In this document: positions 9,349-44,938 of the stretch, piece by piece | How positions within the stretch are numbered: the first letter of the stretch is position 1 | How the letters are laid out: every line of letters starts with the position of its first letter | IMG/VR virus record: IMGVR_UViG_3300030390_000669 | Coordinates: 1-45,314 of that record | Source: a virus | Length of the DNA stretch: 45,314 bases | Strand: one strand, 5' to 3' | Program-made: the position numbers and the translations under genes | The notes under the pieces: generated by a model | Seen by the model: the letters and a program-made list of their open reading frames with translations, nothing else | The model's database searches: none | What the model was told of the DNA's origin: nothing

Positions 9349-9370
9349 AATTGTTCCTCTGTTCTTAACT

Positions 9371-9398
9371 ATTATAACTGATTTGCTAGTAAAGTCAA
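9371..9398 (-). promoter_or_regulatory. Sigma70-type promoter for gp55
   Basis: Reading the minus strand, TTGACT (9398-9393) is separated by 16 bp from a perfect TATAAT (9376-9371), ~25 nt upstream of the gp55 ATG. This would let host RNA polymerase make the late sigma factor early, with the gp47/gp46 genes behind it. Confidence 0.75.
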
Positions 9399-9413
9399 CC
9401 GGTTTTTGCAAGT

Positions 9414-24400: not shown

Positions 24401-27400
24401 GAACATCAAGTGCATTTGATAAGATTGAACGTAAATTTATAACTGATAAACTAGACGTTAAAGTTCACGAACAATATATGTTGTCTAGAAGTTACTTTGG
24501 TAACAAAGATAGATTAGATGCAATAGAATTTACATTAGAAAACAATACATTTGAAACATCACCGCAAGCTATTAAGTTTAATAACTTTATAAGTGGCGAA
24601 ACTGTATATAATGATGTATTAGTTTATCCACCAAGCGATAATAGATTTGTTAATCCAGTAAAGACAGTTAACGCAGGATCATTTGCTATTGGTAAAACTT
24701 ACACTATTGCAGTAGCAGGCACAACAGACTTTACATTAATTGGTGCAACAAATAGTTTATCAGGAACAACATTTACAGCAACAGGCTCAGGCACAGGAAC
24801 AGGCACAGCTACAACAGGCACTTCTTTTGCTACTAGACCTATAACAAGTGTTGACGTAAGTAACTTAACAGCAGGTGCTTTATTAGATACAGAAGCAAAA
24901 TATAAAACAAACTTGTTAAATGAAATTGGAAATGTATATAACGAACTAGAAGATTATGCAGTTATAGAAACTTGGGCAAATAATAAAAGTTATAAATTAA
25001 GTAACTTAGTTAGATATCAAGGCGGACTATATCAATGTGCGGTTGATAGCACAACAGTATCTACTGTAACTGACAGCATTAGCATAACTGGTAACGCAAC
25101 ATCACCAGAATTTACATCTGGAACAGTTGTAAGCATTGACGGTGCACTATTTCCTATATCAGATTCAGAAAATCAAACACAACCAATTACAGCTACAGGA
25201 ACAGTTTTAAATCCTGTTGTTGCGGCACCAACAGCAAGCACTACGCTAACAATTGATGGGCAATCAGTAACACTTAGCAACGCAGGAGATGTTACAGTAT
25301 TAACTGGTGTTCCTGCATCAAAAACAGGAAACGTTGTAAGTCCGGTATTTAATTCAAGTAACGGATTTGTTACAGATAAGCAATTAGTTATTAACGGAAC
25401 AACTGTTGACTTTGATATAACACCACCAGACGTAACACAAGCATTTACAGGTAGCAACAACGGAGTTACTCCAAATGATGTAGTAGAAAACATTACAGCT
25501 ACCGCAACCCAAACATATACAATTACTCAAGCACTAAGTGGATCAACATACAGTGTTAGTGGTGTTACAGTTGATGGGACAGCAAACACAGACTTTACAA
25601 TAAGTGGGCAAGACATTACATTTAATACTCCAACATTTGCGGGCGGTGAAGCTATTGTAGTTACAATGACACACGCCACAGTTGTTGATTTAGAAGATAC
25701 ATTTACAATTATACAAGACATTGTTGGTAGTCCATATACAGTTAAATCGGTCACAGTTGGTGGAGTTGCAAAAACTAGCCCAACACATTATTCAATTAGT
25801 GGACAAGATATAGTATTCACTTCTGGTAATGAACCAGCAGACAGTTCTTCAATTGTTGTAACTGTTGAACACACTCCATTGGGTATGACAACCGCAGAAA
25901 TTGTAACAAAAATTAATGACACACTAGTAGCAAATGGTATTAGCATAACTGAACCAACAGGCACACCATATGTTGGTAATGATGCTATACAGGCTGACTT
26001 AGTTGCAAATAGATTGCGTATAAGATATTGGGCTACAAGTCCATCTAGCAATTTAGTGTTAGGCGCTAGTGTTAACGGCACAAACGAAATATTAGGATTA
26101 GAAACAGCACAAGGCACTTACCCGGTAGGAGCAATAATTGAAACACAAGAACAAGATTTAACTTTAAATCAAGTAGTTACAGCAATTACTAATACAGCAA
26201 ACCTTGGACACATCACTGCAACAAACAGTGGTGGATATTTAAAATTAGTAAGTAGTGCAGACATTACTGATTGGACTCAACGAAGAACAACACTGACAGT
26301 AGGTGGAACACAACAATTAATATTAGGATTTCCAGGTGATACTAGTCCATCGGGAATATATGCAGCGGCTCAACCAGCAGTTGTAGTTCCAGTTACATTA
26401 GCTAAAGCAGTAACTCAAATTACAAATGGACTAGCAGATCCAGTAGCAGCAGGTGGATCAGGGACCGCAGTAACAGGAGTAACAGTTTCAAATGCAGGTA
26501 ATGTTTTAAATATTACATCAGCTAATTCAACACTTACACTAGCAGACTCTGGTGATGCATTTTTAACACAAGCAGGTATCACTAGTTCTGGAGTTATAAG
26601 TTTAATATCAGACAGTTCACAATCAAATACATTTATTCCAGCTGAATGGACAAACGTAAGCCACACAGATCCAGCATTATTTAATGTATGGGTTTCCAAT
26701 GATTCAGATTATCAATTAACATCAATTGGTGGAGTTAAAGCTAAACATTTTGATTGGAATGTATTTCAAGTTCAAAACAATGGACTGTATACAGCAGACT
26801 TAGTAAATAACCCAACTGACCCACTTACAAAAGACGAACCGTGTGGAATATGTTCAGGATCAATGACTGCCGACGGCAATGATGCACAAGTAACTGTAAA
26901 TAAAAATCATGGACTAGCAATTGGTGATTATGTAATGTTGTTAAACACAACTACTACACCTAACATTGATGGTATACATAAAGTTACTAAAATTGGATCG
27001 TCAACAGAATTTTATGTTGACAGATATATTGATAAATGTGGATCAGCAAGCTCTGTAATGTTATTACGTCCAACAAGATTTGAAACAATAGAAGATAGAA
27101 ACACAGCATTAAAAAGTATACAATGGAACGTTCCACCAAACACATTAATCTTTACAGACTATGATGAACTAGAAACAAACAGTAGAACAAGATCTATAAA
27201 TGTATTCCAATCAATATATCCAGTTGTAGGTGGATCAACACTTACTGGTTCAGGATACACAAGTGGCTATCTATATAACGAAGCAGTTAGTAATGCTTCA
27301 GTAGTAACAGATTCCATGTCATTGATTAGACATCAAAGTTCTAGAATTGTAAACACAGACTTAGATAATATAACAGTTTATGATTACGACAGCAATACAC

Positions 27401-32620: not shown

Positions 32621-32629
32621 TATAAATAC
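32621..32629 (+). promoter_or_regulatory. Late promoter within an inverted repeat
   Basis: TATAAATAC is an exact match to the T4 late element. It lies inside the 7-bp inverted repeat CAAGTAT-ATAA-ATACTTG (32615-32632), which could also act as a weak 3' hairpin for the upstream structural transcript. Confidence 0.65.
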
Positions 32630-32683: not shown

Positions 32684-33034
32684 ATGGACGAACGTCTAGA
32701 AAAGGCGTTAGAGTTTAGCAATTACACTCTAACCCTTAATAACCAGAAGCAAAACATTAAAAATAGAGTAGCACAACTACAACTAGTGCATCATAACGGA
32801 GGTGTGTTTGTAGCAAATCAAGAAACTATTTCGTTTGTAAAGACAATGATTGATCTTGGCAAGACTGTTAATGGTGTTATAATTGATTCAAAAGATAATC
32901 CAATAAGAATAAAAGATTACAAAGAGCTACTTGAGAAGCTTGTTGATGCATATGTTAGTGCTTCACAAGAATATGTAGTTGAATACGATAAGCTACGAAA
33001 GTCTAGAAGCATTAAATCAATTATGGATTGGTAA
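32684..33034 (+). CDS. Conserved-type hypothetical helical protein
   Basis: A 116-aa all-helical, charged protein with no Cys and no membrane segment. The start LEKALEFSNYTLTLNNQKQNIKNR and the pattern HHNGGVFVANQETISFV recall a small protein I have seen in marine T4-like phages, function unknown. It is the first gene behind both promoters of the accessory region and abuts the first glycosyltransferase (stop at 33034, next start at 33035). It could be a regulator or assembly factor; nothing in the sequence decides. Confidence 0.6.
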   Translation: MDERLEKALEFSNYTLTLNNQKQNIKNRVAQLQLVHHNGGVFVANQETISFVKTMIDLGKTVNGVIIDSKDNPIRIKDYKELLEKLVDAYVSASQEYVVEYDKLRKSRSIKSIMDW

Positions 33035-33931
33035 ATGCCTGAATATAAAGATAAACAAGGTGTATGTTTCTTTGTCTACAACAATGAAGAATTAGATTAT
33101 GTAGACTTAGTTATGTTGGCAGCTAGATATGTTAAAGAGTATTTAAAACTTCCTGTATGTATAATTACAGATGAAGGCACACACGCTTGGCTAGAGCAAT
33201 CACAATCACAAGAAGATATTGATACGTTTATTGACTATATAAAAATAACCAATGACGAATTCAAACCAAACATGCGTAGACACTTTGACAGTCCATATAC
33301 AGAATTTAACGCACAATTTAGTAACAGCAACAAGCATAAGATATGGGAATACAGTCCGTTTGAACAAACATTATTACTAGACACAGATTACATTGTAAAA
33401 AATAGTTTCCTATTAAAAAGTTTTGAATATGATGGTGTGGCAATGTTTAATAATGCATTAAGTATTAGAAATGATAAACCACGTAGAAACGAAATACTGT
33501 TATACGAACAAGGAATTAAAATGTGGTGGAGCACCGTTGTATATTTTGATCGCAGTGACTTCAGTAAAATGTTTTTTGACCTATGGGCTCATATAGCAGA
33601 CAACTATCAATTTTATCAATTCCTATATAACTTTCCTGGTAAGTTATTTCGCACAGACTATTGTGTAAGTATAGCAGTGCATATTCTCAATGGTATGGAG
33701 CATTCAAACATTATACATAACTATGATAACCAACCTATGTATTTTGTATCACAAAGAGATAATGTTATTGATACAAATAATATCCAAGATTGGATATGCC
33801 TTGGCAACAGTTCAACTGAAAGCTGGAAGGACATTCTTATAAAACATAGCAACTTAGATTTGCATGTAATGAACAAACGTGCTTTGTTAAGAATAAAGCC
33901 AAAACTTGTGGAGCATTTTAATGCCAGATAA
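33035..33931 (+). CDS. Glycosyltransferase-like protein (GT-A, intact DxD)
   Basis: A 298-aa protein. Residues ~10-47 form a Rossmann-like start (GVCFFVYNNEELDYVDLV, then LPVCIITD), and QTLLLDTDYIV places a DxD motif at D116-T117-D118, where GT-A enzymes bind the metal and nucleotide sugar. Later FRTDYCVSIAVHIL resembles the acceptor-side acidic loop. No membrane anchor. It is followed by a paralogue with 11-nt overlap. Sugar and acceptor cannot be told. Confidence 0.65.
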   Translation: MPEYKDKQGVCFFVYNNEELDYVDLVMLAARYVKEYLKLPVCIITDEGTHAWLEQSQSQEDIDTFIDYIKITNDEFKPNMRRHFDSPYTEFNAQFSNSNKHKIWEYSPFEQTLLLDTDYIVKNSFLLKSFEYDGVAMFNNALSIRNDKPRRNEILLYEQGIKMWWSTVVYFDRSDFSKMFFDLWAHIADNYQFYQFLYNFPGKLFRTDYCVSIAVHILNGMEHSNIIHNYDNQPMYFVSQRDNVIDTNNIQDWICLGNSSTESWKDILIKHSNLDLHVMNKRALLRIKPKLVEHFNAR

Positions 33932-34766
33932 TATTGCACAAAATGGTTATGTGATAATTGCTGTTAACCCAACTGAATATAGACAAGCACAATGTTGTGC
34001 ATTTTCAATTAAAAGTAAAATGCCTGATGCAAGTGTTACACTAATAGTAGGAAAACAAAGTAAAGTTCAGCAAAAGTTTCTTAAAGGGTTTGATGCTATT
34101 ACTGAACTACCATTTACTGTTGCTACAAATTGTAGACAGAACGACTGGCAGTTGTATTGGGCAAGTCCATATGAAAATACAATTGCAATAGATTGTAGAA
34201 GTTTAGTTAAAGTTAATCAAGATAGTGTGTGGGATTATTTAATTGACCATTGCAGTATTGCATTTCCTGATTCAATAAATGACATGCGACAAGATCAAAT
34301 ACATCCATTATATAAAAAACATTTAGAGAAGGATTATAACCTACATGTAATTTATAGTAGCATGTTCTTTTTTAAGAAAGATGATATTACTCTAAGACAT
34401 TTTAAAATGGCAGATATTTATTTTCAATATTGGACAGATGTATGTAGCAAATATTTAAAGCCAGAACATATGCCAGACTTCTTTAATGCAGACATAATGC
34501 ACACACTAGTAGCTGATCACACAGGCGGTGATGTAGTGGCTATACCTAAGTTATTAAGTTATATTGATATGAGAAATAGTGCAGGCAACACATCAAATAA
34601 AATTAACAAATGGACTGATAAACTTACTGTGTGGCCAAGCAACGCAGGAAAGATTAAAATACAAAACTATGCAATCAATGATGTTCTATACTATCACGAA
34701 GAAGAGTTTTTAACACAAGAAATATTCAATGAGCAACAACATTACTATGACACCATTGCAAAATAA
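33921..34766 (+). CDS. Paralogous glycosyltransferase-like protein with altered DxD
   Basis: A 281-aa protein. The frame opens at 33906 but I choose the ATG at 33921, because GGAG lies 7 nt upstream and the overlap with the previous gene is then short. Layout follows the upstream glycosyltransferase: GYVIIAVNPTEYRQ, then PYENTIAIDCRSLV, SSMFFFKKDD and FFNADIMHTLVAD. Where the paralogue has DTD this one reads D91-C92-R93, so the second metal-binding Asp is lost. It may be a non-catalytic partner, or use metal-independent chemistry. Confidence 0.55.
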   Translation: MPDNIAQNGYVIIAVNPTEYRQAQCCAFSIKSKMPDASVTLIVGKQSKVQQKFLKGFDAITELPFTVATNCRQNDWQLYWASPYENTIAIDCRSLVKVNQDSVWDYLIDHCSIAFPDSINDMRQDQIHPLYKKHLEKDYNLHVIYSSMFFFKKDDITLRHFKMADIYFQYWTDVCSKYLKPEHMPDFFNADIMHTLVADHTGGDVVAIPKLLSYIDMRNSAGNTSNKINKWTDKLTVWPSNAGKIKIQNYAINDVLYYHEEEFLTQEIFNEQQHYYDTIAK

Positions 34767-35709
34767 TAAACAATGGAACGTAAGATTTAATGCAGAATCT
34801 GGTCGTATACTCGGTATTAGTCCACAACCATTTAAGCAAGTAAATGATAATGAACAAGTAGTATCAGTTACAAACAATGTATGCGGAGAGCTGATATCTG
34901 GTAAAAAGAATATGAGAAGGTATGCAGTGCATTGGGATTCAATTGATGACCGATGGGATATTGATGTTAAAAGTGATACTCTTGTATTAGAAGTAAAAGG
35001 TAACGAACTAAATCAGTTTACTGAAGGCACACATCCTGCTAACAGTGATGTATATGTGCAAGTCATACGTAAAGAAAACATTTTAAGAATTAAAATTAAC
35101 TTATTAACTATTAGGGATTCTCTTAATCTTGGACAAATTAATTTTATTAAAAATGAAAGTCCTGACATATTAGATTTATATGTATGCAGAAAAAACAATC
35201 CAGATTATTTGGTTGGTATAATACCAATTGATGCACTTGAATTATTTAATAACCGTATACTTCATATTGATGTTCCAAAGAATATTGTTGAGCATATCAA
35301 CTCGTGGGACGATATAAGTATTTTTACAAAGCCTGTTTTTAAAACGTATGGTATAGAATTTACTGACCTGTCAGCAGAGAGTATACAAGATCATAGTAAG
35401 AAGCATCAGATATCAAACTCAACATTAGATGCTCATATAAATATGTATACATTAAATGATAATTTAATTATTGATAATAAGATAGACGAGAACATGATAC
35501 ATTATTTTAATAATAAAAAATATATGCAGTTTCATGTTTCCGATAGTCACATTGATAATTATGTAACCACGCTAAACGTAAGTGTAGCTAATTTACTTTA
35601 TGATGATAAAGTTAGATTAGACTTACCTGCTAACTGGCCTGCAAACCCAGTAATTGCTTTTGCAGAAACCCAACTTGCAGTAAATTATATTATGGAGAAA
35701 GAACAATGA
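34729..35709 (+). CDS. Unknown beta-rich protein in the glycosyltransferase cluster
   Basis: A 326-aa protein that I do not recognise. It has two beta-rich halves (~20-200 and ~225-326) with a hydrophilic joint and no Cys-rich or catalytic motif; one Cys occurs near residue 52. The pattern looks structural or carbohydrate-binding rather than enzymatic. It overlaps the previous gene by 38 nt if the first ATG is used, or by 20 nt from the second ATG at 34747; neither has a convincing ribosome-binding site. It ends in an ATGA overlap with the next glycosyltransferase. Confidence 0.55.
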   Translation: MSNNITMTPLQNNKQWNVRFNAESGRILGISPQPFKQVNDNEQVVSVTNNVCGELISGKKNMRRYAVHWDSIDDRWDIDVKSDTLVLEVKGNELNQFTEGTHPANSDVYVQVIRKENILRIKINLLTIRDSLNLGQINFIKNESPDILDLYVCRKNNPDYLVGIIPIDALELFNNRILHIDVPKNIVEHINSWDDISIFTKPVFKTYGIEFTDLSAESIQDHSKKHQISNSTLDAHINMYTLNDNLIIDNKIDENMIHYFNNKKYMQFHVSDSHIDNYVTTLNVSVANLLYDDKVRLDLPANWPANPVIAFAETQLAVNYIMEKEQ

Positions 35710-36692
35710 GTAAAATGCAAAGCATTAACGAATTTGATATTGTATATATCAGTTATGATGAACCTAATGCTGATGAGAACTACGCAGACTTATTAGATAA
35801 ATGTCCATGGGCTAAACGTAGTCATGGAGTTGAAGGAAGTGATGCAGCACACAAGGCCGCAGCTAACATGGCAGAGACAGATAGGTTTATTACTATTGAT
35901 GCAGACAATATTGTAGACCCAGCGTTCTTCAGTGTTGAAGTTGACATGGAGAAAATTACTGATGTTGATGTTATTAGTTGGGCTGGTAAGAACATTACTA
36001 ATGGACTTGTATATGGCAACGGTGGGATTAAGTGTTGGCCAAAAGATGTTGTTATGAATATGCGAACACATGAAAATGCAGATCCTAAAAACAAAGCTGC
36101 ACAAGTAGACTTCTGTTGGAACATTAACTATGTGCAAATGAATAATATCTATTGCACAGTAATGAACAATGGTAGTCCACTACAAGCCTGGCGTGCAGGT
36201 TTCCGTGAAGGTGTTAAGATGGGATTAGTTGACGGTGATGTTATTGATCCAGCTAACCTAAAGAAGACAGTGCATGACAAAAACTATAAACGTTTGTTAA
36301 CATGGATGACAGTAGGTGATGACAGTGACAATGGAATATGGGCAGTGTATGGTGCACGCCTAGGATGCCATATGACAAACATTGGCAGAGAAGAATGGGA
36401 TTGGAAAAACGTTAGAGACTTTAAATGGCTTACTAATTATTTTAATAAAAATGTATTACCAAAGTTTCAAGACAATCCAGATCAACTATGTAAACGCACA
36501 GGCACACAATGGAATTATAAATCAGTAGAAGATGAAAGTATAAGACTTGGTATTGATTTACGTAAGAGATTAGATTTAGAAATTGCTGACCTGGGCAAAG
36601 AAGGCTCTCGGTTCTTTAAAGAAGTATACATTAACCCAAGTCGTATGGGTGCTCAGATTAGAGAAGACCAGGTTGAAGATACGTTAGAATAA
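35706..36692 (+). CDS. Glycosyltransferase-like protein (GT2-type DAD motif)
   Basis: A 328-aa protein. FDIVYISYDEPNADENY (~10-26) opens a GT-A fold, and RFITIDADNIVDPAFF puts the DxD at D65-A66-D67. PLQAWRAGFREGVKM near 160-175 matches the acceptor/helix region of phage GT2-type proteins. The C-terminal ~100 residues are helical and charged. GGAG precedes the start. The next gene (AcpS) begins 1 nt after its stop, so sugar transfer and carrier activation are in one operon. Confidence 0.65.
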   Translation: MSKMQSINEFDIVYISYDEPNADENYADLLDKCPWAKRSHGVEGSDAAHKAAANMAETDRFITIDADNIVDPAFFSVEVDMEKITDVDVISWAGKNITNGLVYGNGGIKCWPKDVVMNMRTHENADPKNKAAQVDFCWNINYVQMNNIYCTVMNNGSPLQAWRAGFREGVKMGLVDGDVIDPANLKKTVHDKNYKRLLTWMTVGDDSDNGIWAVYGARLGCHMTNIGREEWDWKNVRDFKWLTNYFNKNVLPKFQDNPDQLCKRTGTQWNYKSVEDESIRLGIDLRKRLDLEIADLGKEGSRFFKEVYINPSRMGAQIREDQVEDTLE

Positions 36693-36693
36693 A

Positions 36694-37008
36694 ATGAACA
36701 TAGGTGTTGACATAGTTTCAGTTAATAGAATTAAAAAAATCTATAACAAGTATGGAACACGATTTACTGATCAGTTTTTAACAGAAGAAGAAAAACAAAA
36801 AGAACTAACTCCAGAATATATATCAAAGTGCTGGGCTGTAAAGGAAGCTTCAATAAAGGCAAGCGGTATTACAGATGCTAAACAATTTGCATATGGCAAG
36901 AACGGTAAACAACCTATTGTAGTTACTAAAGTAAAAGGCAATTGGAATCTGAGTGTGTCAGATGAAAAAGAGTATGCAGTAGCAATGGTAATAAAATCAA
37001 ATGAGTAA
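36694..37008 (+). CDS. acpS: Holo-[acyl-carrier-protein] synthase (AcpS-type PPTase)
   Basis: A 104-aa phosphopantetheinyl transferase of the AcpS type: NIGVDIVSVNRIKK (residues 2-15, Mg-binding D6) and the hallmark CWAVKEASIKA (46-56, with E51 and K50), then a YGKNGKQPIV segment. It transfers 4'-phosphopantetheine from CoA to the serine of a carrier protein. It is slightly shorter than bacterial AcpS (about 120-130 aa), with the loss in the C-terminal strands. Its likely partner is the ACP at 43791. The radical SAM gene downstream overlaps it by 8 nt. Confidence 0.9.
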   Translation: MNIGVDIVSVNRIKKIYNKYGTRFTDQFLTEEEKQKELTPEYISKCWAVKEASIKASGITDAKQFAYGKNGKQPIVVTKVKGNWNLSVSDEKEYAVAMVIKSNE

Positions 37009-38575
37009 ACTAACCAAAGACTTTGATTGGGAAATGAATTCTCGAACAAAGGGATTTGATCCTGTTGAAAGAAACAAAAAACATATGAAGGACATGCTAA
37101 ACAGCACTGGTCCTGGATTCTGTTTGGCTAAATGGACACAAGTTACTATGCACTTAGGGAATGGCACAACACATAGTTGTCACCATCCAACTCCACACAA
37201 GATACCACTAGAAGAACTAAAGAACAATCCTAGTGCATTACACAATACCAATTATAAAAAACAACAACGTAAAGCAATGCTTAACGGCAAACGTCCTAAG
37301 GAGTGTGACTTTTGTTGGAGAGTGGAAGACAATGGCCAAACAAGCGACCGTGTTTATAAAAGTTTAGATGAGTATAGTTTTAAGCACCACGATAAGATTG
37401 CAGAGCTAGTAGGCAATGAAGATATATTCCCAACATATGTTGAGGTGAGCTTTGGCAATACATGTAACTTTAAATGTGCTTATTGTGGTCCTGTATACAG
37501 TAGCCAGTGGCAACAAGAAATTAAAAACGGCGGAGCATATGAATTAACTGGCACAACATTTAATTCTATAAAGCAAGATGAAACACATATACCGCAACGT
37601 GAACACAATCCATACATTGAAGCGTTTTGGGAATGGTTCCCAGAAGCATACAAACATATGCACACGTTTCGTATTACAGGAGGCGAGCCTTTATTAATTA
37701 AAGATACAATGAAAGTTATTGACTTCTTGTTAGAGAACCCAAACCCAAAATTATCATTTGCTATAAACAGTAACGGTTGTCCACCGGGCAAGTTGTGGAC
37801 TGAGTTTACTGATAAGGTTAAACGATTAGAAGAAGGAAAGTGTGTTAAAGATTTTGTATTGTTTACTAGTGCTGAAGCAGGCGGAGATAGAAATGATTAT
37901 GTTCGGTATGGAATGGATTACGAACTATGGAAAAAGAATATAGAATACTTTTTAGATAACACATCACACGCAGGTGTTACCTGTATGAGTGCATTTAACT
38001 TACTAAGTATCAGTTCTTTTAAAGAGTTATTGCAATGGATATTAAAACTTAAACAAAATTATAATTGGGCAGGTTGGGACCATTGGTTAGACAGCAAAGG
38101 ACTTAGTCGTCCATTACTTAATAAGAATGCTGTTGGTAAGGATGGTAGACCTATAAAGCCAGCTCGTGTATTAATAGATATTCCATATCTTAGGCATCCT
38201 TCTTTCTTAGATGCAAACATTGCCTCAATGCCACTAATTCAAGATCACTTGATGCCTGCAATTGACTTTATGTATAATAATCTATCCCATGCTGATTGGG
38301 GTGGGAATATAGGGTTTGATGATTGGGAAGCAAACAAGTTACGTAGAACTGTAGTTGGTATTGTTGATAAGGCACAAGAACACACACCAGATCAGATAAC
38401 AACTAATCCAGTTACAAGACAAAACAGAACTAGATTTTATGATTTCATAAATCAATATGACAGTCGTAGAGATACTAATTTCTTAGATACATTCCCAGAG
38501 TATGCAGACTTTTTAGAACTATGTAAACAAGAACACAATATACTACACGAGTTGAAAGCAAAGGACAACGCATGA
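37001..38575 (+). CDS. Radical SAM protein with N-terminal auxiliary Cys cluster (twitch-type)
   Basis: A 524-aa radical SAM enzyme. The SAM-cluster motif CNFKCAYC is at C155/C159/C162, followed by ITGGEPLL (GGEP at 227-230) for SAM binding. Upstream of the core, C41, C60 and C102-x2-C105 look like a twitch-type auxiliary [4Fe-4S] site placed N-terminally, as in the twitch-domain radical SAM family. The C-terminal ~150 residues are helical. It would make a 5'-deoxyadenosyl radical to act on an unknown substrate, plausibly a carrier-bound or peptidyl group. It overlaps AcpS upstream and the next gene by ATGA. Confidence 0.85.
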   Translation: MSKLTKDFDWEMNSRTKGFDPVERNKKHMKDMLNSTGPGFCLAKWTQVTMHLGNGTTHSCHHPTPHKIPLEELKNNPSALHNTNYKKQQRKAMLNGKRPKECDFCWRVEDNGQTSDRVYKSLDEYSFKHHDKIAELVGNEDIFPTYVEVSFGNTCNFKCAYCGPVYSSQWQQEIKNGGAYELTGTTFNSIKQDETHIPQREHNPYIEAFWEWFPEAYKHMHTFRITGGEPLLIKDTMKVIDFLLENPNPKLSFAINSNGCPPGKLWTEFTDKVKRLEEGKCVKDFVLFTSAEAGGDRNDYVRYGMDYELWKKNIEYFLDNTSHAGVTCMSAFNLLSISSFKELLQWILKLKQNYNWAGWDHWLDSKGLSRPLLNKNAVGKDGRPIKPARVLIDIPYLRHPSFLDANIASMPLIQDHLMPAIDFMYNNLSHADWGGNIGFDDWEANKLRRTVVGIVDKAQEHTPDQITTNPVTRQNRTRFYDFINQYDSRRDTNFLDTFPEYADFLELCKQEHNILHELKAKDNA

Positions 38576-39255
38576 AACAACCTGCTGTAAAATCAATACA
38601 CTCTAAAGTAGGTTTATTAAATATATTATTTACACCAGGAGCAAGTGGAACTTTCTTAGCAAGCATGCTTGCTCAAGCAATAAGAGATCCTTGGTGGGAA
38701 GATTATGTTCCTGTCTACCATAATGAATTGTTTAGAGTAACAAACGAATTCCTTAATCCATTTAATCATATTGCAATGACTTGGCACCCAGTTAATTTAA
38801 AAGAACGAACACATGAAGTGTTAAGTCTAAAAGATATTAACTGGATTAACTTAACCATTACTCCTGAAGAAGCTAAGTTCACAAAAGTATTGTGGGCAAT
38901 AAAAAGACAAGATATGAGAGGTGTTACAAAAGAAGATATACTGCATAGACTATCAAGTGACACTGACGATGAATACAAAGGCATGCATTTAAGACAAAAG
39001 CGTATAGCATCACATCTAGCAGTTAATAATAATGTGTTGGATGTAAAGTTTAGTGATGTGTTTGTAGATGGAAACACAGATGTAATACTATCCATATTGA
39101 ATACAGTATACAAAGGAAACTATGTTGCAAAAAATGTAGTGGATAATGTATCAGCTCAATGTATTGCTAAACACAAAGCCGATATTAAACTACATGATGA
39201 ATTGCTTGTTCCTGATGGTGACGGACTTATTGATTATATACTAGCTCAAGTATAA
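38572..39255 (+). CDS. P-loop-like protein, possibly sulfotransferase-related
   Basis: A 227-aa protein. After a short strand (LLNILFTPG) comes GASGTFLASML (residues ~21-31), which resembles the 5'-phosphosulfate-binding loop of sulfotransferases (GxxGTFL type), and LDVKFSDVFVDG (~151-162) resembles the later conserved strand. A true Walker lysine is lacking, so kinase activity is unlikely. If it is a sulfotransferase it would decorate the glycan. Low certainty. Its 3' end overlaps the converging gene by 15 nt. Confidence 0.45.
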   Translation: MKQPAVKSIHSKVGLLNILFTPGASGTFLASMLAQAIRDPWWEDYVPVYHNELFRVTNEFLNPFNHIAMTWHPVNLKERTHEVLSLKDINWINLTITPEEAKFTKVLWAIKRQDMRGVTKEDILHRLSSDTDDEYKGMHLRQKRIASHLAVNNNVLDVKFSDVFVDGNTDVILSILNTVYKGNYVAKNVVDNVSAQCIAKHKADIKLHDELLVPDGDGLIDYILAQV

Positions 39256-40248
39256 ATCAAAGAATCCATTTTTTCTTAGTTCTAAATTTATAAAATGATC
39301 ACCAAACGTATATTCTGTTCTGTCAACACCTGACATACTAAGGTTAGGCAACCTTGAATCTAATAGATCTTTATATAATCTAAAGCCAGTGTCATAGTTA
39401 TGATACCTATATGTAAACTCTGTATCTGGCATAACAGTAGCTATACTATTAATTGTTTGTAGCTCTTCTGGTATATCTTTACAAAATGCTAGGTTACGCA
39501 ATGCTACTTCAAACGGAACTGTAAAGAAATTAGATATTTTATACCTTCCACCCACTGAGGCGTAATAGATATCATTTAATACAACATCTGGATCACACGT
39601 TGTTGTGCCACTTGTTATTAATACTTTAGTAGCATTTAAATAGTAAGCAAGCATACAACTACTGTGTCCATTCTTGCAGTCAGCAATAACAGTATACTCT
39701 GTGTTTGGAATTAACTTCTTGATATAGTCAGCTATCTTTTCTGGACTGTTAAGTTTATCATTGATACCATCATACAAACAACTATCATACAATACTGGAT
39801 TGCGAGAACTTCTTCTAACATCTTCTACTATGCTGATAACATTATAGTCAGTGTAATAATCTAACATCCAACTGTTTTGATGTTCAAGTGAATTCCTAGC
39901 AAGTTGTAGTAACCAACTGCCGCCACTTACTGTTACTATAGTTTTATCTTTGCCTCTGTCTATATACGATACTGTATTGTTTTGATCTTGTATTGAATTG
40001 CTATGATTGTTTTCATACATCAGTGTATCTATGTTTTTTAAATCATTAAAATTATCTACAGCATATTGTCTTTGTTTAGGGGAAAGCTGATCATCATTAT
40101 TACTCATCATATGCTTTACCCAAAATTGATTCATTGCACTATAAAAGTTTATACTTTGAGTTGAATCTTCAAAGTCCCAATCATTGTTGGTTATGTATTC
40201 TATAATAGGACATTGCCATTTTCTTCTGCCCACGTGATAAAATTTCAT
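39241..40248 (-). CDS. Alpha/beta-hydrolase-like protein
   Basis: A 335-aa protein. TIVTVSGGSWLLQLA (~103-117) could supply the oxyanion strand and YTVIADCKNGHSSCMLAYYL (185-204) a nucleophile elbow with S196 in GHSSC, a variant of GxSxG with Cys instead of the last Gly. LITSG near 212 and the His-rich end (H329 region) may hold the remaining triad, but I cannot assign Asp and His. The closest idea is an esterase, acyltransferase or thioesterase acting on an acyl or carrier-bound product. It lies one nt after the glycosyltransferase-like gene. Confidence 0.45.
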   Translation of the reverse strand: MKFYHVGRRKWQCPIIEYITNNDWDFEDSTQSINFYSAMNQFWVKHMMSNNDDQLSPKQRQYAVDNFNDLKNIDTLMYENNHSNSIQDQNNTVSYIDRGKDKTIVTVSGGSWLLQLARNSLEHQNSWMLDYYTDYNVISIVEDVRRSSRNPVLYDSCLYDGINDKLNSPEKIADYIKKLIPNTEYTVIADCKNGHSSCMLAYYLNATKVLITSGTTTCDPDVVLNDIYYASVGGRYKISNFFTVPFEVALRNLAFCKDIPEELQTINSIATVMPDTEFTYRYHNYDTGFRLYKDLLDSRLPNLSMSGVDRTEYTFGDHFINLELRKNGFFDLYLS

Positions 40249-41295
40249 TTATAATCCACTGCTCCATCCAGGAAAGATATGCTTATCATATTCTTTTTCA
40301 AGTTCTTCATTGGTTAGTTTTTCTAGCTGTGGTATAATACCATCTGGCCAATATACTTCTCTTACCGGAAACGGTGCCACTGAGCACATTGGTTCATTTA
40401 GATGTCTTGGGTTTATTGATAACACGTGATTGTATATGTCTGGTAGATACTTAGGCATCATAGGAAACATGCTGCTAGGTATGTTCATTTTAGCAGAAAC
40501 TGAAGCAATCATTTCGTGTGTGTCTATTTGCGGATACCCATTACTAAATTTATGTATTGAAAAATTACTGCTATGCCTACTGGGTATATACTCAAGTGCA
40601 TCGTAAACCCATACATCTAATGCATTGCCAACTCCCATTACCCATAAGTCTTGTCCATTAGGATACATTAGTGTTCCGTTGTATCTTCTAATAATTTCTA
40701 TAGGCTGATATAATATTAAATTTTTATTAGCAGTATTAAACGTATGCCTGTTGTTAATTGGCATGTCTGTTAAACTTTTAACTATTGTTCTAAACGCATG
40801 CTTAGGCCATACCAACACATCATAGCGTTGCATAACAACCAAGTCATATGTTATATCTGCCTCAACTTCATACTGTTGTTTTAACATAACAGCTTCAACC
40901 CAGCCTGCTAATACCTTAGACTGTAATATAGACTTTCTAATATCTTTGAGTTTGTTCTCATAGTCAGTGGTATACACTTTAAACTTTTTTGGTTTGTAAT
41001 GTTCGTGTATCTGTTTGGTTTGATAAACAACTGCATCCTCAGTTAGATGTTGTTGGTCTCTGGCATATTCGTAGTTATATTTTTCTTTGTTATAAACTTC
41101 TCTTGTGTATGTGGTTTCATATTCTTTTAAACTACAAAAGAAATCTACGTTTATACCTTCCATTGCATAAAATTGTTTTATAGATTCTATGCATACATCA
41201 CCAGTGCGATATTGTCCATACATGCATACAGCTACATTTTTAATTTGTATGTTGCTTCGTTGATTCTGTTCACGTGTCCATTTAGAAGTTGCCAT
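40249..41295 (-). CDS. Glycosyltransferase-like protein (phage GT type)
   Basis: A 348-aa protein. NVAVCMYGQYRTGDVCIESI (~20-39) and YDLVVMQRYDVLVW (~150-163) match a family of phage and bacterial proteins with GT-A-like fold, in which the RxD loop replaces the DxD. PNGQDLWVMG (~213-222) fits the acceptor loop. No membrane anchor. Its ATG overlaps the stop of the upstream gene by 14 nt, and the next gene follows directly, so the three minus-strand genes form one unit. Donor and acceptor unknown. Confidence 0.55.
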   Translation of the reverse strand: MATSKWTREQNQRSNIQIKNVAVCMYGQYRTGDVCIESIKQFYAMEGINVDFFCSLKEYETTYTREVYNKEKYNYEYARDQQHLTEDAVVYQTKQIHEHYKPKKFKVYTTDYENKLKDIRKSILQSKVLAGWVEAVMLKQQYEVEADITYDLVVMQRYDVLVWPKHAFRTIVKSLTDMPINNRHTFNTANKNLILYQPIEIIRRYNGTLMYPNGQDLWVMGVGNALDVWVYDALEYIPSRHSSNFSIHKFSNGYPQIDTHEMIASVSAKMNIPSSMFPMMPKYLPDIYNHVLSINPRHLNEPMCSVAPFPVREVYWPDGIIPQLEKLTNEELEKEYDKHIFPGWSSGL

Positions 41296-41809
41296 CTGGT
41301 TCCTCCAATGAAGTCCATTGTATGTTTCGTTGCCATAGTGTTCTTTGTAATAGTTCGCGACTATGATCGTTTTCTAATAGATGCGGTTCGTTTTTAAAAC
41401 TATCAATCCATTTCCATACACTTACTAATTTCATAAAACAACTATAGCTGGTTACAAATGTATTGGGTGTAGGGTATGGCTCAGGGTTGTGGCTGAACAG
41501 TTTAGGATCATCTCGATACATATGATCAAATATAATTGTATTCTTAGGAACTGTATCAAACTTGGCTAATAGCTTGTCAAAGTCGTATGGATCAGTTGTT
41601 GCACAGACTGTAGAGCAATTGTTAGCAAGCTCGTGTTGTCCATACTTGTCATACATGTTTACACCATTTATCCAGTGTGCTTTAAAATTATTATACAGAG
41701 AGTATTCATATTGCGGCCAAGAGGTTACAGTATCATTACGTTTTGTTTTGAATATTTCAAAAGTTGAGTGTGGGAAGCTAGTTGCTCCAGTTACGCTTAG
41801 TAGTATCAA
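41282..41809 (-). CDS. Hypothetical protein opening the inverted island
   Basis: A 175-aa protein with a TTG start at 41809, preceded by GGGAG with 6-nt spacing and a late promoter ~25 nt upstream. MILLSVTGATSFPHS suggests a Rossmann-type first strand, followed by an aromatic-rich middle (WPQYEYSLYNNFKAHWIN) and KNTIIFDHMYRDDP. No Walker lysine and no catalytic set seen. It resembles neighbouring small glycan-cluster proteins in composition, and I cannot assign a function. Confidence 0.55.
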   Translation of the reverse strand: MILLSVTGATSFPHSTFEIFKTKRNDTVTSWPQYEYSLYNNFKAHWINGVNMYDKYGQHELANNCSTVCATTDPYDFDKLLAKFDTVPKNTIIFDHMYRDDPKLFSHNPEPYPTPNTFVTSYSCFMKLVSVWKWIDSFKNEPHLLENDHSRELLQRTLWQRNIQWTSLEEPDGNF

Positions 41810-41833
41810 AGTTGACTCCCTATAATTATGTAT

Positions 41834-41842
41834 GTATTTATC
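41834..41842 (-). promoter_or_regulatory. Late promoter (GATAAATAC) for the inverted island
   Basis: On the minus strand GATAAATAC is identical to the elements before gp26 and gp25, 24 nt upstream of the TTG start. It is back-to-back with the plus-strand element at 41847-41855. Confidence 0.65.
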
Positions 41843-41846
41843 GATA

Positions 41847-41855
41847 GCTAAATAC
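41847..41855 (+). promoter_or_regulatory. Late promoter directly before the aminotransferase gene (leaderless)
   Basis: GCTAAATAC ends 4 nt before the ATG at 41860. The 13-mer AAATACTAGTATG is identical to that at the gp25 start, including the ATACTAGTAT palindrome. No ribosome-binding site is possible on the implied mRNA. Confidence 0.55.
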
Positions 41856-41859
41856 TAGT

Positions 41860-42639
41860 ATGGCGTTCACTAAATTGATAGACACCTTTATACTCCCAGA
41901 GGTTCAAGCTGAATTGGATCAAATAAAACCACAGCTCAATGGAAGGCACCAATACGAAACCGATATCAAGACATGGCTTAAACCTTTAATAGATTTAAAA
42001 GACTTTTATGTATACCCAATGAATGGTATAACTGAATGTATTAACTGGTGGCAACAACATGAAACACGCAACGTTAGAAAAGCCAAAGGCGACTACGAGT
42101 GGGTAGACTATAACAAAGTAATGACACTTGGTAATACAGTTGCTTATGTTAGTTGTCCTAGCAGTATTGATGGAAACTACACAGAGATACCAGATGAGGT
42201 TCCTGTTGTGCTTGATATAGCATATGCTGGGTGTGTTCCTGTTAAACCAATTAAATTACTTGACAATGTAGAAAAAGTATTCTATAGTTTAAGTAAACCA
42301 TTTGGTATAGGCAACATAAGAACAGGTTGGTATTTTACTAGACGACCGGACGCAAAACTACATCTACTAAGCATAGAAGCAGCATATTATAACCATTGTG
42401 CTAGCCAGTATGCAGAACATGTTATAAATACATACAGTATAGATTATATATACAAAGAATTAAAGGATATACAACACAGCGTTTGTGCTGAACATAACTT
42501 AACACCAAGCGATTGTGTTTGGTTAGCTACTAGCACAGATGAACAATACAAAGACTTTAGACGTCATGATCAAACTGACGTTGCGAGAATTTGCATCACA
42601 GACTTAATTAAGGAACAACATGGAAACCAATCCAAGTAA
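41860..42639 (+). CDS. Compact PLP-dependent aminotransferase (class I/II fold)
   Basis: A 259-aa protein with the core of fold-type I aminotransferases: NGITECINWW (55-64) as the cofactor-phosphate/substrate loop, VVLDIAYAG with D119 (pyridine N) and Y122, FYSLSKPFG with the Schiff-base lysine K146, and NIRTGW with R154. The usual length is near 400; here the start of the large domain and much of the C-terminal small domain are absent or reduced. It may still be active as a dimer. Its proximity to an ACP suggests transfer of an amino group to a carrier- or sugar-bound keto group. The next radical SAM gene overlaps by 20 nt. Confidence 0.75.
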   Translation: MAFTKLIDTFILPEVQAELDQIKPQLNGRHQYETDIKTWLKPLIDLKDFYVYPMNGITECINWWQQHETRNVRKAKGDYEWVDYNKVMTLGNTVAYVSCPSSIDGNYTEIPDEVPVVLDIAYAGCVPVKPIKLLDNVEKVFYSLSKPFGIGNIRTGWYFTRRPDAKLHLLSIEAAYYNHCASQYAEHVINTYSIDYIYKELKDIQHSVCAEHNLTPSDCVWLATSTDEQYKDFRRHDQTDVARICITDLIKEQHGNQSK

Positions 42640-43780
42640 AAATGTATCAGCAGCAGAACGTGTAGAGTTCAAGCCAACTGAAGAAATGAACGCTCCTATG
42701 ACGGGTGACCCAACCAAGGATAATATTACTATCCTTGATGACAAGCCACCTATCTTTCATAGCTTGCCAGAGTATGATATTGAACGTAACCCGTTTAGTT
42801 TTTTATACGTTGACATGACATATGATTGTAACATGGAGTGCGAGTTCTGTTATAACCCAGTTAGAACATACAGCACATTGGATATTGAATGGTTTGAAGA
42901 TGTATGTGCTAGACTGCCACACCCTGTTAACTTTAGATTGTTGGGTGGAGAGCCAACACTGTATCCACACTTGGATAGAGCATTAGATGCCGCAACCAAA
43001 CATGGACACCAAGCAGCAATTGTTACCAATGGATTGCGTTTGGCCAGTATGAGTTATGCTAAGAAACTTAAAAAGGTTTTAGATCGTAACCCTACAGTAA
43101 ACGTTAGCTTGAGCATGAACGGTGGTATGCATCACGATGATTGGTATATAGACATTGATGGTGAGAGCAGACGCAAGAAGAAAGTCAAAGCACTAGAGAA
43201 CATGTTGGAACTTGGCTATCGTAGACTTTGTATTAACGCTATTATTGTTAGAGGACTAAACGAAGGACTAGTAAAAGAATTTTACGACAAAGCATTACAG
43301 CACCCAGGACAAATAACAAACATACGTTTCCGCACAGCAGCCAAGCAAGGTCGTTGGAATGATGAAATTGATGCGTTTGATAATGATGAACACGATCAAA
43401 CCAGTTACACAGGATTACAACTGGATGAATACATTAAAACTATAATACCAGAAGCACGTAGCCCTATTAAAGTAATACGTGATGGTTATCACCCTAGCAC
43501 AGGTTCAGGAGTTAGACTCAATGTTCCAGGCTTAAAGTGTAACCAATGTTGCTTTATGTATTATATAAGACCACAACTATGGGTTGCCACAGTTGAATTT
43601 GGATCACATAACAGTGCGTTATGCTGGAGACGAGGACAATTGGTGCAGGGTAACGGTGTTATACAACCATTCCATCACTATATGGATGAACTAAGTAGAT
43701 ACATTCAAACTTATCAACCCGGTGGAATGAGAGATACTGCCTCACAAAAAGCAATAAAAAGTATACCTATTCAGGAATAA
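42620..43780 (+). CDS. Radical SAM protein with C-terminal Cys cluster
   Basis: A 386-aa radical SAM enzyme. CNMECEFC gives C70/C74/C77 for the SAM cluster, LLGGEPTLYPHL (GGEP at 109-112) the SAM-binding strand, and C307, C310, C311 and C335 could hold an auxiliary cluster (SPASM/twitch-like, incomplete by eye). The N-terminal 50 residues are disordered and polar. The substrate is unknown; location between the aminotransferase and the ACP makes a carrier-bound amino acid or acyl group a natural guess. It ends 10 nt before the ACP gene. Confidence 0.85.
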   Translation: METNPSKNVSAAERVEFKPTEEMNAPMTGDPTKDNITILDDKPPIFHSLPEYDIERNPFSFLYVDMTYDCNMECEFCYNPVRTYSTLDIEWFEDVCARLPHPVNFRLLGGEPTLYPHLDRALDAATKHGHQAAIVTNGLRLASMSYAKKLKKVLDRNPTVNVSLSMNGGMHHDDWYIDIDGESRRKKKVKALENMLELGYRRLCINAIIVRGLNEGLVKEFYDKALQHPGQITNIRFRTAAKQGRWNDEIDAFDNDEHDQTSYTGLQLDEYIKTIIPEARSPIKVIRDGYHPSTGSGVRLNVPGLKCNQCCFMYYIRPQLWVATVEFGSHNSALCWRRGQLVQGNGVIQPFHHYMDELSRYIQTYQPGGMRDTASQKAIKSIPIQE

Positions 43781-43790
43781 AGGAAAAACT

Positions 43791-44036
43791 ATGAACAAAG
43801 ATGAAACAAAACAAGCAATACAAGATGTATTGACTGCCGGCTTATTCCTCAAAGAGGATACAGCGTTCGACTGGAACACAACATTTGGTGAAGACCTAGG
43901 ACTAGATAGCCTAGATAAGATTGAATGTAAGATGACAATTGAAGATGGACTAAGCGTAACACTGCCAGAAGATAGCTTTGCAGGTGATGTAGACACTGTA
44001 GAAGATGCTGTTAACTTGGTAATGGAACATGCATAG
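43791..44036 (+). CDS. Acyl/peptidyl carrier protein
   Basis: An 81-aa acidic four-helix carrier protein. LGLDSLDKIECKMTIED carries the phosphopantetheine serine S40 in the DSL motif, followed by the helix II acceptor surface with IECKMTIED and a helix III/IV end FAGDVDTVEDAVNLVM. Length and charge are those of ACP. It holds growing or activated acyl or aminoacyl groups as thioesters and would need the AcpS encoded at 36694 (or the host's). An AAAGGA ribosome-binding site precedes the ATG. Whether it serves fatty-acyl, amino-acyl or other cargo is unknown. Confidence 0.9.
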   Translation: MNKDETKQAIQDVLTAGLFLKEDTAFDWNTTFGEDLGLDSLDKIECKMTIEDGLSVTLPEDSFAGDVDTVEDAVNLVMEHA

Positions 44037-44062
44037 CTACAATATACCTTTGGCTGTGAACA

Positions 44063-44938
44063 ATGAAATTAATATTTGATGGCGACAGCTGGACATTTGG
44101 AAGTGAAATTGTAGATCCCAAGTTAGCTGCACAATACAATGATGATGTTCACCCCGGTGCTTACGATCATTTACAAGACAATGACTGGTATAGAGTTCCC
44201 AAACTGTATGCACACAAAATGGCAGAACTGTTGGACTGTGACTATGTAAATTTAAGTTGTCCTGCAGATGATAATAAAACCATACTAGATCGCACTATGG
44301 CTTACATAGCCAGTGAGTATATAAGTCAAAACAAGCCAACTGATGAACTATTTGTAATAATAGGATGGAGCAGTCCTGAACGAAATAGCTTTTGGTGGAC
44401 AGAACTAGAAAGTGATGAACCACCTTATAGGTTTAGGTTATTGCCACACAATGGTCATACTCTAAAAGATCGCGAACTAAAACTATGGGAAATGTATGTA
44501 GAGCATCTGTGGAACCCAGAAGAATACATAACTCGTCACGTATCAACAGTATTAGCATTCCAAAACTTTTGTAAGGCACACAACATTAAATGGTTGTGTT
44601 ACAATGCATTTTATCAACTTCCAACAGTATTGGATACACGACCTAGCAGTTGGGCAGACTTAGATATGAACACTCAGTTAAACAACGTCGACCTATGCGG
44701 CTACACCTATAGTCAAAACGGGCAGAGATGTGGTAGGAAACTGGAGTTCAACAGCTTGTGGGACACTGTGGACCCAGTGAGATTTTATAAAAAGAATCAA
44801 CAGAACAATACATTTAAAAGTTTTATGACAGCTAACCTCGATGATCCTTGGGTAGGTTGGCATCCCAACAGTGACGCACACAGTATATGGGCAAAAGAAT
44901 TAGTAGAATATATCCACTCGCATCAATTATACACTTAG
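44063..44938 (+). CDS. SGNH/GDSL-type hydrolase
   Basis: A 291-aa protein with the SGNH blocks: FDGDSWTFG (nucleophile S9), LSCPADDNKT (N71, block II-like), VIIGWSSPERN (G101, block III-like) and a C-terminal HPNSDAHSIWAKEL (D271 and H273, block V-like; the spacing DxH is unusual). No signal peptide, so it should act in the cytoplasm. Possible roles are release of acyl groups from the ACP (thioesterase) or O-acyl transfer to or from a glycan. The ribosome-binding site is weak; it starts 26 nt after the ACP stop. Confidence 0.75.
   Translation: MKLIFDGDSWTFGSEIVDPKLAAQYNDDVHPGAYDHLQDNDWYRVPKLYAHKMAELLDCDYVNLSCPADDNKTILDRTMAYIASEYISQNKPTDELFVIIGWSSPERNSFWWTELESDEPPYRFRLLPHNGHTLKDRELKLWEMYVEHLWNPEEYITRHVSTVLAFQNFCKAHNIKWLCYNAFYQLPTVLDTRPSSWADLDMNTQLNNVDLCGYTYSQNGQRCGRKLEFNSLWDTVDPVRFYKKNQQNNTFKSFMTANLDDPWVGWHPNSDAHSIWAKELVEYIHSHQLYT

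What the first reader, a model, noticed from the sequence alone, without database searches (positions are those of the whole stretch)
32684..44938. Phage cassette pairing an acyl carrier protein and its PPTase with radical SAM, PLP, SGNH and glycosyltransferase genes
Seen: AcpS hallmarks (GVDIVS, WAVKEASIKA), an ACP with DSL serine, two CX3CX2C radical SAM proteins, an aminotransferase core with lysine K146, an SGNH hydrolase and four GT-like proteins, all in one 12-kb region behind the fibre genes. Known: carrier proteins tether intermediates as thioesters for tailoring enzymes, and AcpS activates them. Inference: the phage makes a carrier-bound amino/acyl building block and attaches it to a glycan on its fibres or on the host surface. 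Having both the carrier and its activator argues for a self-contained pathway rather than hijacking host lipid synthesis.
Basis: partly seen in the sequence, partly recalled or inferred. Interest (0 to 1): 0.88.

Follow-up and report, generated by a model that had tools for sequence, protein, structure and literature searches.

The report
Phage carrier-protein gene cassette beside fibres
A group of giant marine phages keeps, just behind its tail-fibre genes, a conserved set of enzyme genes that includes an acyl carrier protein, the enzyme that switches such carriers on, a radical SAM enzyme and a small aminotransferase; other phages carry the same last two enzymes with different thioester-making enzymes, which suggests an undescribed viral biosynthetic pathway.

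Summary
The cassette is real. AcpS (36694-37008), ACP (43791-44036), two radical SAM proteins and a compact fold-type I PLP enzyme are supported by profiles, intact catalytic residues and purifying selection (omega 0.05-0.19). The block is syntenic behind the fibre genes in related jumbo-phage contigs. In three or four lineages the pair sits with ACP and AcpS. In five others it sits with a thiolase and an ANL-type acyl ligase. A third, larger PLP context (pelagiphage Mosig and relatives) has a fatty-acid desaturase and no rSAM2. So rSAM2 and PLP occur with thioester-forming enzymes in every locus found. Best reading: a carrier-bound amino/acyl tailoring module inside a fibre-adjacent glycan-type island, as in pelagimyophage "host recognition clusters". 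Not supported: "four glycosyltransferases" (no profile hits; two have a DxD motif) and "self-contained" (no loading enzyme recognised). The SGNH gene is variable. Product and target are unknown. The island type is known; the ACP+AcpS+rSAM2+PLP module and its CoA-ligase/thiolase counterpart look new in the sources searched.

The parts
32621..32628 (+). TATAAATA, T4-type late-promoter-like octamer between fibre gene f3 and the cassette
   Evidence: 3 in the window against 8 expected by chance, so position only; a late sigma factor gene is at 8464-9411
32684..33034 (+). g01, small protein, unknown; 65-70% identical in relatives
   Evidence: no family hit above cut-off
33035..33931 (+). g02, possible GT-A-like protein (LLLDTDYIV motif)
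   Evidence: motif; no Pfam hit; homologue in L029
33906..34766 (+). g03, unknown, GT-like by eye only; TTG start as listed, an in-frame ATG lies at 33921
   Evidence: no family hit above cut-off
34729..35709 (+). g04, unknown, fast evolving (28-32% identity in relatives)
35706..36692 (+). g05, conserved protein with invariant D-x-D (DADN/DGDN), putative GT-A-like
   Evidence: no Pfam hit above cut-off
36694..37008 (+). AcpS, compact 104-aa holo-ACP synthase
   Evidence: omega 0.063
37001..38575 (+). rSAM1, twitch-domain radical SAM protein
   Evidence: NF033640 305 bits; C155-X3-C-X2-C
38572..39255 (+). g08, unknown, glycine-rich loop GASGTFLA
   Evidence: not matched to sulfotransferase by hhalign
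39241..40248 (-). g09, unknown, GHSSC motif that could be an alpha/beta-hydrolase nucleophile elbow
   Evidence: motif invariant in 4 sequences; AF2 model poor, pLDDT 41
40249..41295 (-). g10, phrog_13607-like, unknown; weak motif similarity to a putative GT beside the PLP gene in type B loci
41282..41809 (-). g11, unknown
41860..42639 (+). PLP enzyme, compact fold-type I aminotransferase/lyase-like (K146)
42620..43780 (+). rSAM2, radical SAM protein with an extra C-terminal Cys motif CNQCC...C
   Evidence: omega 0.047
43791..44036 (+). ACP, acyl carrier protein (Ser40)
   Evidence: omega 0.094
44063..44938 (+). g15, DUF6071/GDSL-like hydrolase; variable flank, not core
   Evidence: a different DUF6071 protein sits there in L001; not found in L004

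Best explanation
The core of the cassette (AcpS, ACP, rSAM2, PLP enzyme) is one biosynthetic module that works on a thioester-bound intermediate. Proposed course: AcpS puts phosphopantetheine on ACP Ser40; an acyl or aminoacyl group is loaded on the carrier by an enzyme not recognised in the block (a host ligase, or one of g08, g09, g11); the PLP enzyme supplies or processes the amino-acid-derived part; rSAM2 makes a radical change on it; the finished group is handed to a sugar by the glycan-type enzymes of the surrounding fibre-adjacent island, and the result decorates the host surface or, less likely, the virion. In other phages the same rSAM2+PLP pair is served by CoA chemistry (ANL ligase plus thiolase) instead of an ACP. 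Shown by computation: gene identities, catalytic residues, fold of the PLP enzyme, synteny, selection, and association of rSAM2+PLP with thioester enzymes. Inferred: every reaction step, the order, the loader, the product and the target.
For: AcpS and ACP profile hits with intact catalytic/attachment residues. Tight gene packing: g05-AcpS-rSAM1-g08 and PLP-rSAM2-ACP touch or nearly touch. Gene-for-gene conservation in L001-L003, L004 and L021, and in L019/L020 as far as those contigs reach. Constraint: rSAM2, AcpS, ACP and PLP omega 0.047, 0.063, 0.094 and 0.19; rSAM2 and AcpS are 85-86% and 78-90% identical in phages whose gp6 is 48-50% identical. rSAM2 was found in about nine lineages, always near PLP: four with ACP+AcpS, five with thiolase and ANL ligase (Pfam check of two members). 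Sugar nucleotidyltransferase or sulfotransferase genes occur next to the module in L004, L001 and L045. Precedents: ACP-bound AHBA is glycosylated by MitB with CoA ligase MitE, and a radical SAM enzyme is proposed in the pathway (PMC8621148); SPT, a PLP enzyme, uses a dedicated ACP and ligase (PMC9386255); pelagimyophage host recognition clusters hold fibres, GTs and radical SAM cassettes (PMC7029224).
Against: No recognisable loader in the block. The PLP enzyme occurs without ACP or AcpS in 30 other records, so direct use of a carrier-bound substrate by it is not implied. GT-like genes hit no GT family. rSAM2 has no characterised close relative: the only solved hit is tetraether lipid synthase at E 6e-9, TrsS- and MoaA-like otherwise. 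One AcpS stands alone on a 91-kb fragment. The number of independent lineages is small, and the contigs are fragments.
Confidence: 0.45

Rival explanations
1. Loose cargo: the fibre-adjacent hypervariable island collects unrelated enzyme genes, and ACP/AcpS, the radical SAM proteins and the PLP enzyme do not share a pathway.
For: Such islands are known to be variable (PMC7029224). PLP occurs in three different contexts. AcpS stands alone in L022. In L029 the same place holds g05 directly followed by twitch radical SAM genes, with no ACP.
Against: Strict synteny across diverged lineages; rSAM2 always with PLP and with thioester enzymes; strong purifying selection.
Confidence: 0.22
2. Host lipid hijack: ACP and AcpS divert or boost host fatty-acid synthesis, and the neighbours are independent.
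For: Phage ACPs are reported singly in other phages (PMC10152775). Desaturase genes sit beside the PLP gene in type C loci.
Against: The ACP is below the curated cut-off for housekeeping ACP (TIGR00517, 44 bits against 70). It is in one operon-like run with PLP and rSAM2 and has its own PPTase, while no fatty-acid synthesis enzyme is recognised in the block.
Confidence: 0.15
3. Amino-lipid synthesis of the serine-palmitoyltransferase kind: the PLP enzyme condenses an amino acid with acyl-ACP (type A) or acyl-CoA (type B), and the product is an aminoketone lipid or signal.
For: Rhodobacterial SPT co-occurs with a dedicated ACP and acyl-ACP synthetase (PMC9386255). Acyl-active enzymes lie beside the PLP gene in all three contexts.
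Against: The motif is LSKxFGxxNxRxGW/Y, and the nearest folds are Trp aminotransferase, alliinase, threonine-phosphate decarboxylase and HisC, not alpha-oxoamine synthases. The enzyme has 259 residues, far below a typical alpha-oxoamine synthase (about 400, general knowledge).
Confidence: 0.1
4. DNA-base hypermodification pathway using radical SAM and PLP enzymes.
For: Radical SAM and PLP enzymes occur in known thymidine hypermodification pathways (general knowledge); QueC-like genes lie near the module in L044 (by inspection).
Against: No base kinase, transferase or deazaguanine gene recognised in the window block; position behind fibre genes; a carrier protein is not expected.
Confidence: 0.03

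Closest known systems
Host recognition cluster (HRC) of pelagimyophages (PMC7029224) and Mosig EXVC030M (MT647606)
   Same: Fibre genes next to a variable island with GTs, radical SAM cassettes and surface-type enzymes; Mosig carries a 44% identical PLP enzyme there
   Different: No ACP or AcpS in Mosig and no rSAM2 near its PLP gene; its PLP neighbours are a desaturase, FMN reductase, TauD-like dioxygenase, methyltransferase and GNAT
Mitomycin MitE/MmcB/MitB/MitD pathway (PMC8621148)
   Same: ACP, ACP-dependent tailoring including a glycosyltransferase, and a radical SAM enzyme in one pathway
   Different: No CoA ligase in the phage type A block; GTs unproven; no sequence relation tested
Dedicated AcpR/AasR/serine palmitoyltransferase system (PMC9386255)
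   Same: PLP enzyme co-occurring with a specialised ACP (and a ligase; in type B phages an ANL ligase)
   Different: The phage PLP enzyme is aminotransferase/lyase-like, not alpha-oxoamine-synthase-like; the phage module also has a radical SAM enzyme and a PPTase
Single phage ACP genes (e.g. Vibrio phage R16F, PMC10152775; Brevundimonas phage Bajun; Xanthomonas phage phiXF1; phrog_5934)
   Same: Phage-encoded acyl carrier proteins
   Different: Here with a dedicated AcpS and a syntenic enzyme block; the window's ACP has no match in 50,697 phage records

Membership tests
AcpS / PPTase superfamily (PF01648) | Profile score above the curated cut-off | tested here: met
   40.5 bits against 25; TIGR00556 48 against 45.35
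AcpS / PPTase superfamily (PF01648) | Catalytic Asp and Glu, and the KEAxxKA motif | tested here: met
   D6, E51, K55 invariant in 7 sequences
AcpS / PPTase superfamily (PF01648) | AcpS equivalog cut-off (TIGR00516) | tested here: not met
   49.9 bits against 59.8: a diverged, compact AcpS-type PPTase
AcpS / PPTase superfamily (PF01648) | Phosphopantetheinylates the cognate ACP | not testable with these tools
   needs an in vitro assay
Acyl carrier protein (PF00550) | Profile above cut-off with DSL serine | tested here: met
   28.2 bits against 20.8; D39-S40-L41 invariant
Acyl carrier protein (PF00550) | Housekeeping fatty-acid ACP equivalog (TIGR00517) | tested here: not met
   44.3 bits against 70.45
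Twitch-domain radical SAM (NF033640), rSAM1 | Score above the curated cut-off | tested here: met
   304.9 bits against 170
Known radical SAM equivalogs (MoaA, TrsS, Tes and others), rSAM2 | Score above any equivalog cut-off | tested here: not met
   best TrsS 55.6 bits against 490, MoaA 52.7 against 325
Fold-type I PLP enzymes | Fold, catalytic Lys, Asp to the pyridine N, phosphate and carboxylate Arg | tested here: met
   model pLDDT 90, PDB matches to E 3.5e-10; K146, D119, R154, R243 invariant
Alpha-oxoamine synthases (SPT/BioF/AlaS) | Nearest fold relation | tested here: not met
   top PDB matches are TAA1, alliinase, CobD and HisC types
Glycosyltransferases (g02, g03, g05, g10) | Match to a GT profile | tested here: not met
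   no GT hit for g02, g05, g10 or their homologues, nor for g03
Glycosyltransferases (g02, g03, g05, g10) | GT-A fold | not tested
Pelagimyophage-type host recognition cluster | Variable island next to fibre genes with glycan-type and radical SAM genes | tested here: met
   position behind f0-f3 in all cassette contigs that reach it; variable 3' end; glycan role itself not shown

The most novel reading that the evidence does not exclude
Marine phages encode a previously undescribed family of carrier-tethered biosynthetic pathways built on a phage-specialised rSAM2+PLP pair, in interchangeable ACP/AcpS and CoA-ligase/thiolase forms, that make a new amino/acyl substituent and install it on a surface glycan during infection.
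Probability: 0.25. Interest if true: 0.88.

Novelty: new variant of a known kind. Interest (0 to 1): 0.66.

Why it matters
Phages are known to carry single ACP genes and fibre-adjacent glycan islands, but I found no described phage that brings its own PPTase with its ACP in one block with tailoring enzymes. If the module acts as proposed, a virus runs thioester-template biosynthesis of the kind known from antibiotics and dedicated lipid pathways. The recurrence of one radical SAM plus PLP pair with two unlike thioester systems gives a handle for finding the product, and the proteins are small and easy to test in E. coli.

Tried and rejected
Phage-record searches with ACP, AcpS, g05 and g09 gave nothing. 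AF2 of g09 from 4 sequences was too poor to use (pLDDT 41); the hydrolase idea rests on the GHSSC motif only. g08 as a sulfotransferase: hhalign against the type B sulfotransferase failed. g02 against g05 as one GT family: no relation. g10 against the type B GT-like protein: only a 20-column motif, E 3e-4, probability 42%. I considered the ~77-100 aa protein after rSAM2 in type B as a hidden ACP: it is DUF6356 or SET-like in the members scanned and PF00550 finds no ACP in those records. I considered recent horizontal transfer as the reason for high identity: dS of core genes is similar to gp6 dS in the close pair, so constraint explains rSAM2; AcpS in window against L018 has lower dS (0.56 against 1.24 for gp6), so recombination is possible there. 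Bacterial origin: the only genome-contig hit of the PLP enzyme is an 8.6-kb MAG contig with the pelagiphage-type gene order, probably a phage fragment; no bacterial source was found, with one scan only. Late-promoter octamers are fewer than chance and carry little weight. Literature searches for a phage AcpS/PPTase found none, within an open-access library only.
Full report
WHAT WAS CHECKED. The window is a 45,314-base virus record. Its gp6-like baseplate protein (15251-18421) is about 33-37% identical to that of jumbo myoviruses such as PBECO4/RaK2-like phages, SCTP-2 and Phosso, so the record is probably a fragment of a large T4-related phage genome. A 3825-aa fibre-region protein (18433-29910) and three smaller fibre-type proteins precede the cassette.

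THE GENES. From 32684 to 44938 there are 15 genes. Eight run forward (g01-g05, AcpS, rSAM1, g08), three run in reverse (g09-g11), and four run forward (PLP enzyme, rSAM2, ACP, g15). Many neighbours touch or overlap by a few bases. AcpS: PF01648 3e-10 and solved AcpS chains up to 2.8e-9; it is compact (104 aa) and falls below the strict AcpS equivalog cut-off. ACP: PF00550 2e-6, phrog_5934 1e-9, acidic (20 acidic, 5 basic residues), below the housekeeping-ACP cut-off. rSAM1 belongs to the twitch-domain radical SAM subfamily. rSAM2 belongs to no characterised subfamily. The PLP enzyme scores just under the Pfam class I/II aminotransferase cut-off, but a model built from 26 relatives has pLDDT 90 and matches fold-type I enzymes: Trp aminotransferase, alliinase, threonine-phosphate decarboxylase, HisC. 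All expected cofactor and carboxylate residues are invariant. The claimed four glycosyltransferases have no profile support; g05 and g02 have a strand-end DxD motif.

CONSERVATION. The block is present gene for gene in L001-L003 (about 76-98% identity), L004 and L021 (gene by gene from about 30% for g04 to 80-90% for AcpS, g05 and rSAM2), and up to the contig ends in L019 and L020. ACP is found by profile in all three larger contigs tested. In a more distant phage (L029) the same fibre genes, g02, g05 and twitch radical SAM genes occur, but g05 is followed directly by the radical SAM gene and there is no ACP; AcpS thus sits at a defined junction that can be without it. Between the window and L001, omega is 0.047 for rSAM2, 0.063 for AcpS, 0.094 for ACP and 0.19 for PLP, against 0.17 for gp6 and 0.17-0.28 for the fibre proteins. 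GC content of the block (33-39%) does not stand out from the rest (34-38%). The SGNH-like g15 is not core: L001 has another DUF6071 protein in that place, and L004 has a HAD phosphatase, a sugar nucleotidyltransferase and a second twitch radical SAM protein instead.

THE WIDER PATTERN. Scans of viral contigs with the PLP enzyme gave 33 loci, against one in 84,980 bacterial and archaeal genomes, which looks like a misbinned phage fragment. Twenty-eight virus records, the MAG genome and Mosig lack both ACP and AcpS. Clustering their genes shows three contexts. Type A: PLP-rSAM2-ACP with AcpS (window, L001-L003, L004, L021). Type B: rSAM2, a thiolase, PLP, a sulfotransferase or GT-like protein, and an ANL ligase (L043/L044, L045; then L072/L073, L076, L078). 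Pfam confirms thiolase and AMP-binding domains far above cut-off in the two members scanned. Type C: desaturase, PLP, TauD-like dioxygenase, methyltransferase, GNAT, Asp/Arg hydroxylase, as in Pelagibacter phage Mosig. rSAM2 is about 60% identical between types A and B and was never found without PLP and thioester enzymes. This is the strongest evidence that the ACP and AcpS belong to the same pathway as rSAM2 and PLP: two unlike thioester systems serve the same pair.

MECHANISM. I propose a carrier-bound (type A) or CoA-bound (type B) intermediate worked on by the PLP enzyme and rSAM2 and delivered to a glycan by enzymes of the fibre-adjacent island. The chemical precedents are mitomycin, where an ACP-bound acid is glycosylated and a radical SAM enzyme is proposed in the pathway (PMC8621148), and rhodobacterial sphingolipids, where a PLP enzyme uses a dedicated ACP and ligase (PMC9386255). 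The biological precedent is the host recognition cluster of pelagimyophages, whose authors favour O-chain modification that prevents co-infection (PMC7029224). The reactions, loader, product and target are inference.

LIMITS. All relatives are contig fragments; type A has four lineages with ACP seen (the window and L001 are close to each other). One AcpS (L022) lies beside thymidylate synthase and DHFR-like genes on a 91-kb fragment whose thymidylate synthase is closest to that of a jumbo phage also found by the gp6 search; no ACP, rSAM2 or gp6 match was found on that fragment, which does not show absence from the genome. Several genes of the block (g01, g03, g04, g08, g09, g11) have no assigned function.

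VERDICT. Observation mostly right; interpretation right in kind but overstated in 'self-contained' and in the glycosyltransferase count. The ACP+AcpS+rSAM2+PLP module and its CoA-ligase/thiolase counterpart are, in the sources searched, undescribed.

Noticed in passing
L043/L044, L045, L072/L073, L076, L078: Phage modules with rSAM2, thiolase, PLP enzyme and an ANL acyl ligase, plus oxygenase- and GNAT-like genes; a phage-encoded CoA-thioester pathway that deserves its own study.
   Followed up: partly
L040 (MT647606 54701-60954) and about 25 viral loci: Conserved pelagiphage-type module: desaturase, compact PLP enzyme, TauD-like dioxygenase, methyltransferase, GNAT, Asp/Arg hydroxylase, sometimes FMN reductase and peroxiredoxin.
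   Followed up: partly
L029 9971-20576: Run of six radical SAM proteins similar to rSAM1 behind fibre genes in a related phage, interspersed with SGNH-like and unknown genes.
   Followed up: no
L044 14289-16785: Two QueC-like proteins (by inspection) next to a radical SAM protein in a type B phage.
   Followed up: no
L022 4133-13252: AcpS beside thymidylate synthase, DHFR-like and several radical SAM genes on a 91-kb jumbo-phage fragment without a detected ACP.
   Followed up: partly
L042 (JABAAK010000084.1): Contig filed under a Patescibacteria MAG has the pelagiphage-type PLP gene order; likely a misbinned phage fragment.
   Followed up: no
18433-29910: 3825-aa fibre-region protein with a weak carbohydrate-binding module match (CBM_5_12, E 2e-4).
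   Followed up: no
8464-9411: Late sigma factor (gp55-like) gene; TATAAATA lies at 32621 just before the cassette, but such octamers are fewer than chance in the window.
   Followed up: partly
39241-40248: Reverse-strand gene g09 with an invariant GHSSC motif; could be an alpha/beta-hydrolase (thioesterase-like) and so an offloading enzyme, untested.
   Followed up: partly
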